Positions 26,926 to 34,112 of a stretch of DNA of 34,112 nt are shown here, piece after piece (position 1 is the stretch's first letter; every line of letters begins with the position of its first letter). The position numbers and the translations under genes were made by a program. The stretch spans positions 1 through 34,112 of the forward strand of contig CANRVI010000005.1 of NCBI GenBank assembly GCA_947643245.1, in the 5' to 3' direction. Under the pieces are notes generated by a model. It was not told the DNA's origin and did no database searches. It saw nothing but the letters and a program-made list of their open reading frames with translations. This DNA is from an uncultured Clostridia bacterium (GTDB lineage: Bacteria > Bacillota > Clostridia > Oscillospirales > CAG-272).

Positions 26926-28113
26926 ATGAAAAGAACATCAAAAAAGATTCTCTCCTGTTTTTGTTCGCTTGTACTGCTCATGCAAATAATTTCTATCAAT
27001 TTGGCAGCCTTGAACGAACCGGGTATATTTTTGGATCAAACACTTGAAAACGGGATCAGGTACAATTGGGAGTTGGATGAAAATGGTAAGAAAAGCAGTA
27101 TTATCATTAAAGGTGTTGAAAACGGCTCCGAAGCTGCATTGGCGGAGCATATCGTCATTCCTGATGAAATAAGCGGACTTCCTGTAGTCGCAATATATGG
27201 GCAGGCGGTTTCGCACTGTGATATGACTTCTGTTACTATTCCAGATAGTGTAAGATACATATATCCGGAAGCTTTTTATCAATGTTCTTCACTTACTTCT
27301 GTTATTTTTTCAGGAGGGGCGGAAAATTTACATATTATCGGTGAAAGAGCATTTAAAGAGTGTATCAACCTCGGCGATATCAATATTCCCGACAGCGTTG
27401 AATGGATTGGGCCAAATGCGTTTGAAAACTGTGAGAAGCTTACTACCGTAAAGCTTTCAAAAAATTTGACGGAAATCAAAGCCGCTACTTTTCAAGGGTG
27501 CGCCAGTCTGTCATCCGTAGCAATTCCCGAAGGGGTAACTGCAATAGGTGATGGTGCATTCGCCTGGTGTTCTTCTCTTAAAACAATAACGATTCCCGAC
27601 AGTGTTAAAATTGTTGAAGGTAATGCATATGCGAATTGTAAAGACCTTACATCGGTAAAAATCCCGGGCAGTGTAGAGATATGGGGAAATAAAATTTTTT
27701 CAAATTGCAGCAGTCTCAACACGGTAAAAATTGCAGAGGGGGTTACTTCCATTGCACCAAAAATGTTTGAAGACTGCTTCGCACTTACAGGCATTGAGTT
27801 GCCTGAAAGCGTTACAGAAATTTGTGATAGTGCATTTCTCAACACCGGGCTTACAGAACTTCCTGTATCCAACAGTGTCAAAACCGTTGGTAATAACGCA
27901 TTTTCAGGCTGCAACGGACTTTCGTCCGTAATTATTCCGGGAAGCATTACTGCAATTGCAGACAGTGCATTTTCAAAATGCACTGGCCTTACATCTGTGA
28001 CGATTTCGGATGGTATTAAGACAATCGGCAAAGAAGCATTTTCATACTGCGGCAATCTTGTATCGGTAATATTGCCGTCCATGTCTGTGACTGCAACCAC
28101 GCTGCCCCGGTAG
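26926..28113 (+). CDS. BspA-like leucine-rich-repeat (LRR_5) secreted/surface protein, 3'-truncated
   Basis: SD AAGGAG, signal-like N-terminus KKILSCFCSLVLLMQIISINLAA, repeated SLTSVxIPDSVxxIGxxAFxxC units. Last residues are encoded by an RHS fragment read antisense. Confidence 0.87.
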   Translation: MKRTSKKILSCFCSLVLLMQIISINLAALNEPGIFLDQTLENGIRYNWELDENGKKSSIIIKGVENGSEAALAEHIVIPDEISGLPVVAIYGQAVSHCDMTSVTIPDSVRYIYPEAFYQCSSLTSVIFSGGAENLHIIGERAFKECINLGDINIPDSVEWIGPNAFENCEKLTTVKLSKNLTEIKAATFQGCASLSSVAIPEGVTAIGDGAFAWCSSLKTITIPDSVKIVEGNAYANCKDLTSVKIPGSVEIWGNKIFSNCSSLNTVKIAEGVTSIAPKMFEDCFALTGIELPESVTEICDSAFLNTGLTELPVSNSVKTVGNNAFSGCNGLSSVIIPGSITAIADSAFSKCTGLTSVTISDGIKTIGKEAFSYCGNLVSVILPSMSVTATTLPR

Positions 28114-28563
28114 TCGTAGTGGTAGAACCGGTACTCCCCGCCGCACACCGACCATAGGAGCCCGTCGGCGCCGTATCCGTAGGTGGTGTCCTGTTCCAGA
28201 TGGTCACTGGTCCACAGCAGCCGGTGCCTGCCTCCCGAACAGTCGTATGCATACTTCATGTTGGTGTGATAGTAGTACATGTTGATCCGGTTGCCGTCCG
28301 CATCGTACCAGTACTCGTTCCAGTCTCCGTCAATCTGCTTGATCCGGTCTTTTTTGTCGTAGTCCACAGATACGCTTTTTCCCTCGTGCATGTGGCTGGA
28401 TATATTTCCTTTTACAGATGTCCAGTACTTCTGTCCGTTCCACTCTGCCAGACGGTTGTCGTCCTCATAAACAAACGTATCGGTGTTACCGCCGCTTTGG
28501 GCCTCTAAAATATTGCCGGCAGCGTCATAGGTGAAGGTTTCCACGTTGTTCACCGCATTTGTA
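28060..28563 (-). pseudogene. RHS/YD-repeat core fragment, second copy of 30481..30984
   Basis: Base-by-base reading matches 30481..30984 throughout (offset 2421); encodes TNAVNNVETFTYDAAGN...DMDGNITDT with no surrounding RHS frame. Confidence 0.92.
28060..28563. repeat. direct repeat copy 1 (504 bp)
   Basis: Matches 30481..30984; diverges at both flanks (t/g before, t/c after). Confidence 0.92.
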
Positions 28564-28569
28564 TAAAAC

Positions 28570-28612
28570 ATGGGCAGCTTTACGTTTTGAAAAACTTTGT
28601 AAAGCTGCCCAT
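28570..28612. terminator. 14-bp inverted repeat, possible terminator of the RHS-tip/membrane protein operon
   Basis: ATGGGCAGCTTTAC-gttttgaaaaacttt-GTAAAGCTGCCCAT; on the minus strand followed by GTTTTAT. Confidence 0.55.
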
Positions 28613-28643
28613 CTTATTTACTTTTGCGCTTTTGAGGTTGTTT

Positions 28644-29435
28644 TTACTTAAGAATGCCTTTGTCAACCAGTACTCCAAGGATTGTTACAATGGTAAGTAG
28701 GGCTAGGAATATAATCAAAATTTTGATCGCTAGTCTTTTTTTCGCTGACATTTTCTTTCGAATAACAGGAAGCGATTCTCCGGGAATAGAATATTTTTTG
28801 ACAAAATAAGCTACTAAAAAATGTGGTATTCCAAGCGCGGCTAACACTGATACAATATAGCATAATATAAAAGCTACATTTATTGCTACCTCTTGCGTCA
28901 TCCATTTAGACGCAAATTTCATTAAAGAGATTCCAGAAACTGCTCCGATTGAAGAGGCAATAGCCAGGCCTGCTCCCTTTTTTTGTCCCTCCTTTGCTTC
29001 GCTATATGCTCCTTTTTTGATATTATAAATTTTGAAAGTGAAAATAAGAAATACAGCTAAAATCCATGCCAGCCCTATAATAACGGAATATGTAAATTTC
29101 ACTTCTCTGTTTAACAAGTCTGATGTCTCAATTAGCAAATACGGTATCATTAAAAAAAACAAAGACATAAATAAAGATGAACTTGCAGAAAGCAAAAATC
29201 TTTGATAATAGGAAATAGATGCCAATTTTCGTTCCAATACATTTACCGCTGTTATATAAAATATTTCTGCTACTATAAACACAGACATAACAATAAATTT
29301 GTGTGTCACTATCCCTGCTATTAGTGGAACAAGTCCTATAAAGATATAGACTCCTGCTAATGATTTAATACTGGATAAAGGTAGATATGCCTCAGAATAT
29401 TTTTTTACATAACCTTTTATACTATCTAATTCCAT
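28644..29435 (-). CDS. polytopic (about 7 TM) membrane protein, candidate immunity protein
   Basis: 263 aa with repeated hydrophobic segments; SD AGGAG; starts 24 nt after the RHS stop on the same strand. Confidence 0.8.
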   Translation of the reverse strand: MELDSIKGYVKKYSEAYLPLSSIKSLAGVYIFIGLVPLIAGIVTHKFIVMSVFIVAEIFYITAVNVLERKLASISYYQRFLLSASSSLFMSLFFLMIPYLLIETSDLLNREVKFTYSVIIGLAWILAVFLIFTFKIYNIKKGAYSEAKEGQKKGAGLAIASSIGAVSGISLMKFASKWMTQEVAINVAFILCYIVSVLAALGIPHFLVAYFVKKYSIPGESLPVIRKKMSAKKRLAIKILIIFLALLTIVTILGVLVDKGILK

Positions 29436-29459
29436 TTAATTTAACTCCTGTAATTTTCA

Positions 29460-32400
29460 TTACCAAATTGCATCCCATTTATCGCTAAACCAACTACCAA
29501 CATCAGAAGCGGTATTGCCAATCCAAGAACCAAAGTCACTGGCTGTATCGCCAATCCAACATCCCATATCAACAGCTCTGTCTCCAACCCAGGCAAGACC
29601 TTCCTTGCCCCATTCAACAACTGATTTTCCGTTAAAAGTTAATACATCTGTTACAATGTATATAGTTCCACCAACGACTAAGCCGCCTGCTGCACCGATA
29701 GCATTTCCGGGACCTGGAAGTGCAGAGCCTATAGCTGCCCCCGCGGCAGCAGAAGCCCATATCGTTCCAACTCCAACCCCGGTGTCAACGACAGCGTCTG
29801 TAACAATCTTTTGTGTACGGGTGCCATCCTGGATATTGTCATATATCCCCAGCCCGACGTCTAAAGCAACGGTACCATATCCTAAAACGCCACCCCAGTT
29901 TACACTGCCCTTGCTGGTTATTTTTAAAGCTTCTTTGCCTGCTGTAGTCGGCTTAACATAGCTGAAAACATTCGGATAAAGATCAGCATTTTTGAAGGCA
30001 TATCTTGTGCCTTTTATTCCCTGACTGAATGCCGGTTTTGAATGAGCGCCTTTAATGATCGCGTACTGCCCGACCTTATCAATGTTGAATCCGTATTTGG
30101 CATAGTTGTATGTTCGAACACCAATTTCCTTTCCATCAAGTCCCCAGCCAATATAATCTGCCGGTCCCGGATTCAACTCCCAGCCGATTTCAAATCCACT
30201 GTTATTATTTCCCCTGTCAGCAGACAATCCCCAGGGATCCACATAGGAAATCGGGTTACCATTGACATAGGTGAACACGTTGAGGGAGGTGGAGTCGGCG
30301 ATGCTCCCCTCTAGTATATCAGCATTCATGAAGCGTTTCAAGGCCGGATTGTAAAATCTTGTACGCATGTACAAAAGTCCGTTCGGATCTGTGAGCACCC
30401 CGTACTGTCCGTTGTAACCAAAAATCAGCTTGCTGTCACCGGTGCGTTCAATCGTGCTGCCGTATGCGTCATACTTTACGGTATCGGTAATATTGCCGTC
30501 CATGTCTGTGACTGCAACCACGCTGCCCCGGTAGTCGTAGTGGTAGAACCGGTACTCCCCGCCGCACACCGACCATAGGAGCCCGTCGGCGCCGTATCCG
30601 TAGGTGGTGTCCTGTTCCAGATGGTCACTGGTCCACAGCAGCCGGTGCCTGCCTCCCGAACAGTCGTATGCATACTTCATGTTGGTGTGATAGTAGTACA
30701 TGTTGATCCGGTTGCCGTCCGCATCGTACCAGTACTCGTTCCAGTCTCCGTCAATCTGCTTGATCCGGTCTTTTTTGTCGTAGTCCACAGATACGCTTTT
30801 TCCCTCGTGCATGTGGCTGGATATATTTCCTTTTACAGATGTCCAGTACTTCTGTCCGTTCCACTCTGCCAGACGGTTGTCGTCCTCATAAACAAACGTA
30901 TCGGTGTTACCGCCGCTTTGGGCCTCTAAAATATTGCCGGCAGCGTCATAGGTGAAGGTTTCCACGTTGTTCACCGCATTTGTACGCATATCATATTCCG
31001 TGCGCTTGGTAAGTCTGCCAAGCTCGTCGTATTCCATGGCGTACCGCAGATTTTGCGCCACACAGATTTCATCCCGGATTCGGCCGAGGTCATCGTATCC
31101 GTAGGTCCCGGACGTGATAAGTTGTCCGCTTTTGTCCTTGTCTGTGAAGGAGGACAGCCTGCCGCTGGCTTCATAATATTTTTGTGTGACGCTTCCGTTG
31201 GGGCGGGTAATCTTAGTGATTTGATTCTTATTATTGTACTGGTATGTAGTGGTGCAGTTGGTATTTTCCATACCGCTGGAAAGCATGTTGTGGTTTTCGT
31301 CGTATGTATAGACGGCGATTTCCCCATTGGGGTAGGACATTTTTATCAGGTTTCCGCATGCATCGTATTCATATTCCAGCTCATGTCCGTATATATCCGT
31401 ATACTTTGTCACACGGTTCAGGCCGTCGTATTCCCGCTTTACCGTCCCGCTGCTGTTTGTCGCTTCTGTTATGTTGCCGTTTTCATCGTACGTATATTCG
31501 GTCCCTACGCTGCGATCCTCGGTTAATCTGCCGGCTGCGTCGTATGTATATGCGCTGTATATGTTGAGCGGATCCAGTACATAGGCTTTTAGCCCCAGCG
31601 TGTTATAAACGGTTTTTTCTTTACTGTTGGCGAAACGCTCTCTTTCGTGCAGCAGGCCGGCGGAATTATAGGTATATTCCCGCTGGTCGCCGGCTGGCCC
31701 GGTCATAGAGGTACAGTTTCCGGTGCCGTCATAGGTAGCATAGCTTATGCCGCCGGCCTTATCTACTGCGCTGATCATTTGGCCTGCTCCGTTATAGGTA
31801 TAGAAAGAGCTTTGCTGCAGGGCGTCGGTTTGTTGGGTAAGGTTGCCCGACCAGTCGTATACGTTTGTGGTCTTTTCCCCGGCTGCGTTTGTAATTTCGG
31901 TAGCTCTGCCGGCTGCGTCGAATACGGCCTCAAAATCCACATGACCGGACGCGTTTGTGATTTTCACAACATTGCCGAGGGCATCATATTCCCGGGTAAC
32001 AGTATTTCCTTTTGCATCCGTCTGGGCGGTCATTCTGCCAAGAGCGTCGTAGGTATAGGATACCACATGTCCGCCGGGATCCTTTGTCGAAATAAGGCGA
32101 TTCAGGCTATCGTAGGTATTGGTGGTAATTTGGCCGAGGGGATCTGTAACGGTGAGCAGATTGTCCGCCGCATCATAGGTATAAGCGGTGGTATATCCCC
32201 GCGGGTCCGTAACGGTGAGCAGATTGCCAAAGGTGTCATAGATGTTTTGGATAGTGTTTCCAACGGGGTCTGTAACGGAAAGCAGATCTCCGGCGGAGTT
32301 ATATGTATAAACTGTTGTACCCCCTACCGGATTTTCCGTTCCGATTAGTCTGCCATTGGCGTTATAGGTATAGGTCGTATGGTTTTCCTTAAATTTTCCG

Positions 32401-34112
32401 GGGATAGGACGGAGATATGGGTCATAGGTTTCGACACGCTGCGTATGTTTTATCAGGTTGCCTGCTGCGTCATATTCCTTTAGAATTACTCCGCCTTCTG
32501 CATTCGTCGTTTTAACAACATTGTTTGCCGCGTCATACTCGTATGCGGTGGTGTTTCCGTCACGGTCGGTTTGACGGGTCAGTCTGCCCCCTGCATCATA
32601 GGTATTGACAGTTTCCGTACCATCGGGAAATACCGTTTTTACCAGTCTGTCTTCGCCGTCGTATTCATATAAAATGGTGGCGCCCACAGGCAGAGTCATA
32701 GAAGTCATTTTCAGGTTTCCGTTGTAGGTATAGGAAGTGACATTCCCATTTGCGTCCGTAGACTTCACAAGGCTGCCGCCTGCGTCGTATTCCTTTGCAG
32801 TTACATTTCCTGCTGCATCTGTCACCGTAAGCACATTGCCTTTGTTGTCATAAGTATAGCTTGTGGTGTTGTCCTGGGCGTCAGTGACAGACATCAAAAA
32901 TCCGGCTTCGTTATACGCTTTGGTTGTGGTTCTACCCATCGGATCTGTAACGGCTGTCGGCTGTCCTTGGGTATATGCGTACGTAACGGTTCTGCTTGCA
33001 TAAGATACCTTGGTAAGCAGATTCTGTGCGTTATACGTATAGGTTGTGATAACGCCCCGCAGGTCGTTGCTGGAGGTCAGCAGATTTTTACTGTCATAGG
33101 TTTTGGTAACAGTACCGCCGTCAGGGTATTTGATTTTTGTTAGGTTATTTTTTGCATCGTAGGTATATTCGGTTTTGTTGCCAAGTTTGTCGGCGCTTGA
33201 AATCAGGTTATCCCTTGCATCATATACGTTTACGGTGCTGTTGCCCAGTCCGTCCGTCTTTTTCGTCAGGTTTCCGTGGGAATCATATGCATATTTTGTT
33301 TCTACACCGTTGGGATCAGTTTTGCTGACAAGCTGTTTTTTACCATTATATTTATATACAGTTGTCTGCGCGGTTCTGTCGGTAACGCTGACCAGCAGAT
33401 AATCGGGATCGGCTGTTTCATCGTAGCGGATGACCGTTTCAGCGCTGTCCGCAATCGCATCCTTTTGGCGGATCACCCTTCCTGCGCTGTCATAGGTATC
33501 TGTGAAATAGATGGTGCCATTCTGATCCCGGCCTCGCTCGACCTGTCCGTTTTCGCTATACTGATAGGACAGGACTTCGCCGTTTTCATCGGTAATGGAA
33601 ACAAGATTGCCATCAATATATCCCAGCGTGCAGGTCCTGCCCGCATTGTCCGTTACAGACATGATCTGTCCATCGCTGTTTTTTGCAAGCAGCATATATC
33701 TGCCGGAAACTTCGTCTGTAATTTTTACGGTATTTTCGTCGGGATAGGTAATCAGCGTATTCAGTCCAGTTTTGTTTGTAATTTTTGTGAGTTTACCGTG
33801 GTAATCGTAGTATTCCATAGACTGGTCGTTGCAGTTTACAACGTAGCTGGTATTCAGCCCGTCCGGGATTCTCGTGGCGATATAGTTTTCTTTTGTAACC
33901 GTATCGCTTTTGTATACATTTTGAGCTTCCGGTTTTGTATACATCGCATAGTATGTGGGACTGTCATAGACTTGAAGATGACTTCCATGGTCAACGACTC
34001 TCTTTTCAAAGTTATGTGACCAGCCCTTTCCTACCGCGCTTTGTGTAAGCAGATTGGAACTGTAATGGATGCTGAAGGGGATTGCCTGCGCACCGGAAAT
34101 GGTCATCAGCGT
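29460..34112 (-). CDS. RHS/YD-repeat protein with variable C-terminal tip; N-terminus beyond window
   Basis: Dozens of YDxxGxLxxxTDxxGxxxxYxYD repeats, conserved LLYMRTRFYNPALKRFMNADILEG...NVFTYVNGNPISYVDPWGL junction, then an unrelated approx. 255-aa tip. Reading frame is open to the window edge. Confidence 0.93.
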   Translation of the reverse strand, partial: TLMTISGAQAIPFSIHYSSNLLTQSAVGKGWSHNFEKRVVDHGSHLQVYDSPTYYAMYTKPEAQNVYKSDTVTKENYIATRIPDGLNTSYVVNCNDQSMEYYDYHGKLTKITNKTGLNTLITYPDENTVKITDEVSGRYMLLAKNSDGQIMSVTDNAGRTCTLGYIDGNLVSITDENGEVLSYQYSENGQVERGRDQNGTIYFTDTYDSAGRVIRQKDAIADSAETVIRYDETADPDYLLVSVTDRTAQTTVYKYNGKKQLVSKTDPNGVETKYAYDSHGNLTKKTDGLGNSTVNVYDARDNLISSADKLGNKTEYTYDAKNNLTKIKYPDGGTVTKTYDSKNLLTSSNDLRGVITTYTYNAQNLLTKVSYASRTVTYAYTQGQPTAVTDPMGRTTTKAYNEAGFLMSVTDAQDNTTSYTYDNKGNVLTVTDAAGNVTAKEYDAGGSLVKSTDANGNVTSYTYNGNLKMTSMTLPVGATILYEYDGEDRLVKTVFPDGTETVNTYDAGGRLTRQTDRDGNTTAYEYDAANNVVKTTNAEGGVILKEYDAAGNLIKHTQRVETYDPYLRPIPGKFKENHTTYTYNANGRLIGTENPVGGTTVYTYNSAGDLLSVTDPVGNTIQNIYDTFGNLLTVTDPRGYTTAYTYDAADNLLTVTDPLGQITTNTYDSLNRLISTKDPGGHVVSYTYDALGRMTAQTDAKGNTVTREYDALGNVVKITNASGHVDFEAVFDAAGRATEITNAAGEKTTNVYDWSGNLTQQTDALQQSSFYTYNGAGQMISAVDKAGGISYATYDGTGNCTSMTGPAGDQREYTYNSAGLLHERERFANSKEKTVYNTLGLKAYVLDPLNIYSAYTYDAAGRLTEDRSVGTEYTYDENGNITEATNSSGTVKREYDGLNRVTKYTDIYGHELEYEYDACGNLIKMSYPNGEIAVYTYDENHNMLSSGMENTNCTTTYQYNNKNQITKITRPNGSVTQKYYEASGRLSSFTDKDKSGQLITSGTYGYDDLGRIRDEICVAQNLRYAMEYDELGRLTKRTEYDMRTNAVNNVETFTYDAAGNILEAQSGGNTDTFVYEDDNRLAEWNGQKYWTSVKGNISSHMHEGKSVSVDYDKKDRIKQIDGDWNEYWYDADGNRINMYYYHTNMKYAYDCSGGRHRLLWTSDHLEQDTTYGYGADGLLWSVCGGEYRFYHYDYRGSVVAVTDMDGNITDTVKYDAYGSTIERTGDSKLIFGYNGQYGVLTDPNGLLYMRTRFYNPALKRFMNADILEGSIADSTSLNVFTYVNGNPISYVDPWGLSADRGNNNSGFEIGWELNPGPADYIGWGLDGKEIGVRTYNYAKYGFNIDKVGQYAIIKGAHSKPAFSQGIKGTRYAFKNADLYPNVFSYVKPTTAGKEALKITSKGSVNWGGVLGYGTVALDVGLGIYDNIQDGTRTQKIVTDAVVDTGVGVGTIWASAAAGAAIGSALPGPGNAIGAAGGLVVGGTIYIVTDVLTFNGKSVVEWGKEGLAWVGDRAVDMGCWIGDTASDFGSWIGNTASDVGSWFSDKWDAIW
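30481..30984. repeat. direct repeat copy 2 (504 bp), inside the full RHS ORF
   Basis: Matches 28060..28563. The antisense ORFs 28200..28508 and 30621..30929 have identical 102-aa translations, consistent with this. Confidence 0.92.

What the first reader, a model, noticed from the sequence alone, without database searches (positions are those of the whole stretch)
28644..30240. RHS C-terminal tip with glycine-zipper/membrane character followed by a polytopic membrane partner: candidate toxin-immunity pair
Seen: after the DPWGL junction (about 30226..30240) the RHS protein changes to an approx. 255-aa tip. It contains IWASAAAGAAIGSALPGPGNAIGAAGGLVVGGTIYIVTDVL, a Gly/Ala-rich hydrophobic stretch with GxxxG-type spacing. 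An ORF with about 7 hydrophobic segments starts 24 nt downstream with its own SD. Established: polymorphic RHS toxins carry a variable tip after a DPxGL-type motif with the immunity gene immediately downstream; glycine-zipper membrane-disrupting tips paired with membrane immunity proteins are known in other Gram-positive polymorphic toxins (LXG class). Inference: this tip acts on membranes and the 263-aa protein confers immunity. No nuclease or ADP-ribosylase motif is obvious to me in the tip.
Basis: partly seen in the sequence, partly recalled or inferred. Interest (0 to 1): 0.7.

Follow-up and report, generated by a model that had tools for sequence, protein, structure and literature searches.

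The report
RHS membrane-toxin tip with membrane immunity
A gut Clostridia bacterium appears to carry a large surface or secreted protein whose end is an interchangeable membrane-puncturing toxin, next to a gene for a membrane protein that should protect the producer; it is a new family of a weapon type that is already known.

Summary
After DPWGL (30225-30239) the RHS ORF carries a 254-aa tip (29463-30224). A 263-aa ORF with 6 hydrophobic segments follows after 24 nt, preceded by AGGAG. Neither protein matches a curated Pfam or NCBIfam family. Relatives show a real cassette. The same genus has an adjacent pair (66%/59% identity). A phylum-level relative carries the whole tip (38% over 210 aa) on a non-RHS protein, again followed by a 7-segment membrane gene. 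The C-terminal 140 aa is a conserved module with a zipper at G162/G166 and G173/G177/G181 (10-11 of 11 sequences), carried by RHS, LXG/WXG and eCIS-core proteins. All 8 intact RHS tips with it are followed by a 4-7 TM gene, against 0 of 26 control RHS tips. Partner genes also persist beside decayed tips and as orphans. Best reading: a pore-forming glycine-zipper toxin, related in design to TelE and EsxX but delivered by an RHS protein like Tse5, with a distantly conserved membrane immunity protein. No activity was measured, and the tip's structure prediction failed (pLDDT 30). New member of a known kind; interest moderate.

The parts
30240..34112 (-). RHS/YD-repeat core of the carrier protein, cut at the contig end
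   Evidence: PF05593 E 9.5e-150; Rhs_assc_core TIGR03696 over cut-off at 30225-30473
30225..30239 (-). DPWGL junction between RHS core and tip
   Evidence: sequence
29883..30224 (-). N-terminal region of the tip (114 aa), shared with the same-genus pair and with the non-RHS relative G1147, not with the other carriers
   Evidence: 68% identity to G164, 15-19% to other RHS tips; 38% over 210 aa of the whole tip with G1147
29463..29882 (-). C-terminal glycine-zipper module (140 aa) shared across RHS, LXG/WXG and eCIS-core carriers
   Evidence: alignments A3, A11; searches
29643..29774 (-). hydrophobic glycine-zipper hairpin, tip residues 151-194; conserved G162, G166, P170, G173, G177, G181
   Evidence: conserved in 10-11 of 11 homologues; sub-threshold Pfam Gly-zipper_OmpA E 0.038
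29463..29594 (-). C-terminal tail of 11-residue W-[VI]-G-[DN]-x-A-x-D-x-G-x repeats, amphipathic
   Evidence: period-11 self-identity 0.38, 0 of 5000 shuffles reach it at any period 3-19; hydrophobic moment 0.337 against shuffle mean 0.118, reached by 4 of 5000
29436..29459 (-). 24-nt gap with Shine-Dalgarno-like AGGAG at 29445-29449
   Evidence: sequence
28644..29435 (-). 263-aa polytopic membrane protein, predicted immunity protein
   Evidence: 6 hydrophobic segments; homologous partner in G164, 59%; low GC3 0.26 against 0.56 in the RHS core
28570..28613 (-). terminator-like hairpin closing the cassette
   Evidence: fold -27.4 kcal/mol, z -6.9
28060..28563 (-). 504-bp exact copy of the RHS core (same as 30481-30984), tipless
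   Evidence: self-BLAST 100% over 504 bp; the only second copy in the genome

Best explanation
The locus is a polymorphic toxin-immunity cassette at the end of an RHS carrier. The RHS shell most likely encloses the tip while it is made and exported. The tip is released at the DPWGL junction and meets the target cell membrane from outside. Its conserved glycine-zipper helical hairpin inserts and packs with other copies into an ion-leaking pore, and the amphipathic 11-residue-repeat tail lies on the membrane surface. The adjacent 6-TM protein sits in the producer's membrane and blocks insertion or assembly. Shown by sequence: the cassette structure, the conserved zipper module, the repeat tail, the linkage to membrane partners, and orphan or retained partner genes. 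Inferred: encapsulation and cleavage (from Tse5 and other RHS toxins), Sec export (from the full-length relative in G164), pore formation, and immunity.
For: A same-genus pair is conserved and adjacent: tip 66%, partner 59%. The whole tip recurs on an unrelated carrier in G1147, followed by a 7-segment membrane gene and further partial copies of it; G1121 has a split toxin with the partner intact. The module appears in 8 intact RHS tips, each followed by a 4-7 TM gene, against 0 of 26 control RHS tips (Fisher p 5.5e-8). G665 has a tip with in-frame stops and an intact 220-aa 6-TM gene. Partner genes stand alone in G037, G091, G280 and G800. Partners are distantly alike by profile: hhalign P 1.7e-12 for the orphans G037/G091, about 1e-6 for G132/G002, about 1e-5 for G1147/G1121, against 0.04-0.4 for unrelated polytopic proteins. 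The zipper glycines are the most conserved positions. The G164 carrier has a hydrophobic signal-like N-terminus, a C39-like peptidase domain and DUF6531. Glycine-zipper toxins EsxX and TelE damage membranes, and RHS toxin Tse5 forms pores and has membrane immunity (PMC12744356, PMC10434224, PMC9637101).
Against: No toxicity, pore or protection was measured. The AlphaFold model of the tip is uninformative (mean pLDDT 29.7) and that of the partner is poor (56.2), with no PDB fold match. Some partners are barely alike: G215 and G890/G665 give hhalign probabilities of 14-39%. The eCIS-core carrier G446 has no membrane gene beside it, and the LXG carriers have other neighbours. In this one sequence the zipper spacing is only weakly non-random. 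A nearby six-pass protein was not protective in the TelE case.
Confidence: 0.75

Rival explanations
1. The glycine-zipper module is an entry domain that inserts into the membrane only to bring the N-terminal 114 aa across, and that region is the poison, for example an unrecognised enzyme.
For: The N-region differs between carriers while the C-module is shared, as expected if the module were a common vehicle. The window N-region is conserved with G164 and G1147.
Against: No Pfam, NCBIfam or PDB match for the N-region. Partners are polytopic membrane proteins, not cytoplasmic binders. The module ends the protein, where polymorphic toxin domains lie. In CDI ionophore toxins the variable N-terminal part is the entry domain and the zipper part is the ionophore (PMC11630599).
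Confidence: 0.13
2. The tip is a toxin, but the membrane protein is a helper for export, receptor or translocation, not immunity.
For: It lies 24 nt behind the RHS gene and is polytopic. In TelE the adjacent six-pass protein did not protect against cytoplasmic toxin.
Against: Partner genes persist without the tip or beside decayed tips, sometimes with further partial copies, as immunity genes do. Each tip has its own divergent partner.
Confidence: 0.08
3. The tip is a harmless hydrophobic anchor that holds the RHS protein in the producer's own membrane, and the neighbour is unrelated.
For: It is hydrophobic, at the C-terminus, and has a membrane-binding type of repeat tail.
Against: The module moves between RHS, LXG/WXG, eCIS-core and another carrier and is linked to membrane partners 8 of 8 against 0 of 26; other RHS proteins of the family have unrelated tips.
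Confidence: 0.04

Closest known systems
TelE (LXG toxin, Streptococcus gallolyticus) and its immunity TipE
   Same: C-terminal glycine zipper, membrane-damaging, polymorphic toxin of Bacillota (PMC10434224)
   Different: Delivered by T7SSb through an LXG domain; neutralised by a soluble DUF5085 protein; none was seen among the genes next to the RHS tips here
EsxX with ExiCD and ExiAB (Staphylococcus aureus)
   Same: Glycine-zipper membrane-depolarising toxin; polytopic membrane immunity against the outside form; immunity genes found as orphans (PMC12744356)
   Different: LXG carrier; needs a pair of membrane proteins plus a soluble pair for the cytoplasm; here one membrane gene, in an RHS setting that may enclose the toxin. 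The paper says ExiCD homologues are only in Staphylococcaceae
Tse5-CT / Tsi5 (Pseudomonas aeruginosa)
   Same: Pore-forming domain at the end of an RHS protein with a membrane immunity protein (PMC9637101)
   Different: Gram-negative T6SS; Tsi5 has two TM regions; no sequence match of the window tip or module to any PDB chain
CDI ionophore toxins
   Same: Variable entry part plus ionophore part with GxxxGxxxG as the only shared element; hydrophobic immunity proteins (PMC11630599)
   Different: CdiA carriers of Gram-negatives; immunity proteins of 72-100 residues with two helices, against 189-283 residues and 4-7 TM here

Membership tests
RHS polymorphic toxin-immunity system | RHS/YD repeats ending in an Rhs_assc_core with a DPxG(L) junction | tested here: met
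   PF05593, TIGR03696 over cut-off, DPWGL
RHS polymorphic toxin-immunity system | variable tip with a small gene directly downstream, both exchangeable | tested here: met
   tips and partners differ between related RHS genes; whole tip recurs on a non-RHS carrier
RHS polymorphic toxin-immunity system | tip is toxic and neighbour protects | not testable with these tools
   needs expression; only indirect evidence here
Glycine-zipper pore-forming toxins (TelE/EsxX type) | conserved GxxxGxxxG in a C-terminal hydrophobic helical segment | tested here: met
   G162/G166 and G173/G177/G181 kept in 10-11 of 11
Glycine-zipper pore-forming toxins (TelE/EsxX type) | LXG carrier of a T7SSb | tested here: not met
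   the window carrier is RHS; some relatives of the module are LXG/WXG proteins
Glycine-zipper pore-forming toxins (TelE/EsxX type) | DUF5085 soluble immunity nearby | tested here: inconclusive
   the partner has no Pfam match and the LXG neighbours scanned were not DUF5085; not every neighbouring gene was scanned
Glycine-zipper pore-forming toxins (TelE/EsxX type) | membrane depolarisation | not testable with these tools
   no assay
Tse5/Tsi5 family | sequence homology to Tse5-CT | tested here: inconclusive
   no PDB sequence match of the module or the tip; Tse5-CT itself was not compared directly

The most novel reading that the evidence does not exclude
One toxin-immunity family, a glycine-zipper module plus a superfamily of roughly 6-TM immunity proteins, is passed between RHS, T7SS LXG/WXG, eCIS-core and at least one further carrier type in Bacillota. 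The variable N-region would set entry and the 11-residue amphipathic tail would tune insertion. In the RHS setting the shell would replace the cytoplasmic immunity that LXG versions need.
Probability: 0.35. Interest if true: 0.6.

Novelty: new member of a known kind. Interest (0 to 1): 0.45.

Why it matters
Pore-forming RHS toxins are worked out in Gram-negatives (Tse5), and glycine-zipper toxins in the LXG class. This locus joins the two in gut Clostridia and gives an undescribed, testable family with a membrane immunity partner. It also poses a clear question: whether enclosure in an RHS shell removes the need for the soluble cytoplasmic immunity that EsxX requires.

Tried and rejected
Structure prediction of the tip gave pLDDT 29.7 and was not used; the partner model (56.2) gave no significant PDB match. 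Pfam, NCBIfam, PADLOC and PDB sequence searches found no family. Weak module hits in phage tape-measure-like proteins, a dynamin-like protein and others were rejected as general hydrophobic glycine-rich matches. A first attempt at the control set failed on strand handling and was redone. No relatives in plasmids or viral contigs. Single-sequence zipper spacing was judged too weak to stand alone. A direct sequence comparison with TelE, EsxX or Tse5 was not made.

Full report
What is there. The RHS ORF on the minus strand (29460..34112) is cut at the contig end; the window is the whole contig C5 of a 61%-complete genome. The DPWGL junction is at 30225-30239 and the tip is 254 aa (29463-30224). 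A 263-aa ORF (28644-29435) starts 24 nt later with AGGAG upstream and has 6 hydrophobic segments. A strong hairpin follows (28570-28613; -27.4 kcal/mol, z -6.9). GC3 falls from 0.56 in the RHS core to 0.40 and 0.34 in the two halves of the tip and 0.26 in the partner, as for an exchanged cassette.

Known families. The tip has only a sub-threshold Gly-zipper_OmpA match (E 0.038), and the partner has none in Pfam, NCBIfam or PADLOC. No PDB sequence relative was found for the module or partner profiles or for the tip.

Relatives of the pair. In 246 family genomes the tip has six matches and the partner four, the window's own genome included. G164, same genus (Candidatus Avispirillum faecium by its record), has both, adjacent, at 66% and 59% identity. 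Its carrier is complete: 2369 aa with a hydrophobic signal-like N-terminus, a Peptidase_C39_2 domain, DUF6531 and RHS repeats. In G1147, a distant Bacillota genome, the whole tip recurs at 38% identity over 210 aa (E 1e-29 for the pair) at the end of a 421-aa protein that is not RHS, followed 35 nt later by a 267-aa protein with 7 hydrophobic segments and then shorter pieces of similar genes. In G1121 of the same genus the toxin is split into two ORFs and the partner is intact.

The module. The last 140 residues are a unit of their own. Against other RHS carriers the window N-region is 15-19% identical (except G164), while the C-module is 30-54% identical. Besides RHS, the module occurs in WXG/LXG-type proteins (G456, G804) and in an eCIS_core protein (G446); an LXG-type protein in G139 was a weak match in the first search. 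Across 11 sequences the best kept positions are D122, N130, D143, V146, D147, G162, G166, P170, G173, G177 and G181. The tail of the window tip is a run of 11-residue repeats beginning with W. Its period-11 identity (0.38) is reached by none of 5000 shuffles, and its hydrophobic moment is reached by 4 of 5000. G164 has the same repeats; G132 has what looks like a shorter version and G002 almost none (by eye).

The partner. All 8 intact RHS tips with the module (window, G164, G132, G002, G215, G708, G594, G890) are followed on the same strand by a 189-283 aa gene with 4-7 hydrophobic segments; the gap is 11-104 nt, except 273 nt in G708. Of 30 control RHS tips from the same family, 26 have a following gene within 150 nt and none of those has 4 or more segments (Fisher p 5.5e-8). 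With the 150-nt limit applied to both sets the count is 7 of 7 against 0 of 26. The tips were chosen by tip similarity, not by neighbour; they are related to each other, so the p value overstates independence, and the segment count is a simple hydropathy rule. Profile comparison links the partners weakly to strongly, with unrelated polytopic proteins as a control (P 0.04-0.4). Partner relatives without a tip stand in G037, G091, G280 and G800, and G665 keeps an intact 220-aa gene beside a tip with in-frame stops. This is how immunity genes behave: EsxX immunity genes exiCD are found as orphans in the same way (PMC12744356).

Mechanism. TelE and EsxX are glycine-zipper toxins that damage or depolarise membranes. 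Tse5 is an RHS protein with a pore-forming tip and a membrane immunity protein, and the EsxX authors note that the RHS shell makes a cytoplasmic immunity protein unnecessary. The window locus fits the same logic: an enclosed zipper toxin and one membrane partner. Pore formation and protection are inferred. Predicted structures gave no help.

Surroundings. A 504-bp exact copy of the RHS core (28060-28563 = 30481-30984) lies directly after the hairpin, has no tip, and is the only other copy in the genome. It abuts a BspA-type leucine-rich-repeat gene on the other strand, whose ORF runs a few codons into the copy and looks truncated there. Such displaced core pieces are, from general knowledge of RHS loci, traces of cassette insertion by recombination; an assembly fault cannot be excluded.

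Verdict. It is a new family within a known kind of weapon, with moderate interest.

Noticed in passing
window 28060-28563 and 30481-30984: 504-bp exact direct repeat of the RHS core, with the tip and partner gene between the copies; the second copy has no tip. Possible trace of cassette insertion, or an assembly matter.
   Followed up: partly
window 26926-28113, + strand: BspA-type leucine-rich-repeat protein (LRR_5 E 1.3e-89) with a signal-like N-terminus, apparently truncated by the RHS core copy.
   Followed up: partly
L043 3529-5433: eCIS_core protein with the same glycine-zipper module at its C-terminal part and no membrane gene beside it.
   Followed up: partly
L099 4419-5981 and L100 3088-5259: Non-RHS carrier of the whole tip with an intact partner and partial further copies; in the sister genome the toxin is split and the partner is intact.
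   Followed up: partly
L089 5190-6056, L090 5885-6709: Orphan relatives of the partner with a shared AYYxKKYDIxGxS motif, beside uppP-like and feoB-like genes.
   Followed up: no
L011 1584-8693: Full-length relative of the carrier holds a C39-like peptidase domain ahead of DUF6531, possibly used in processing.
   Followed up: no
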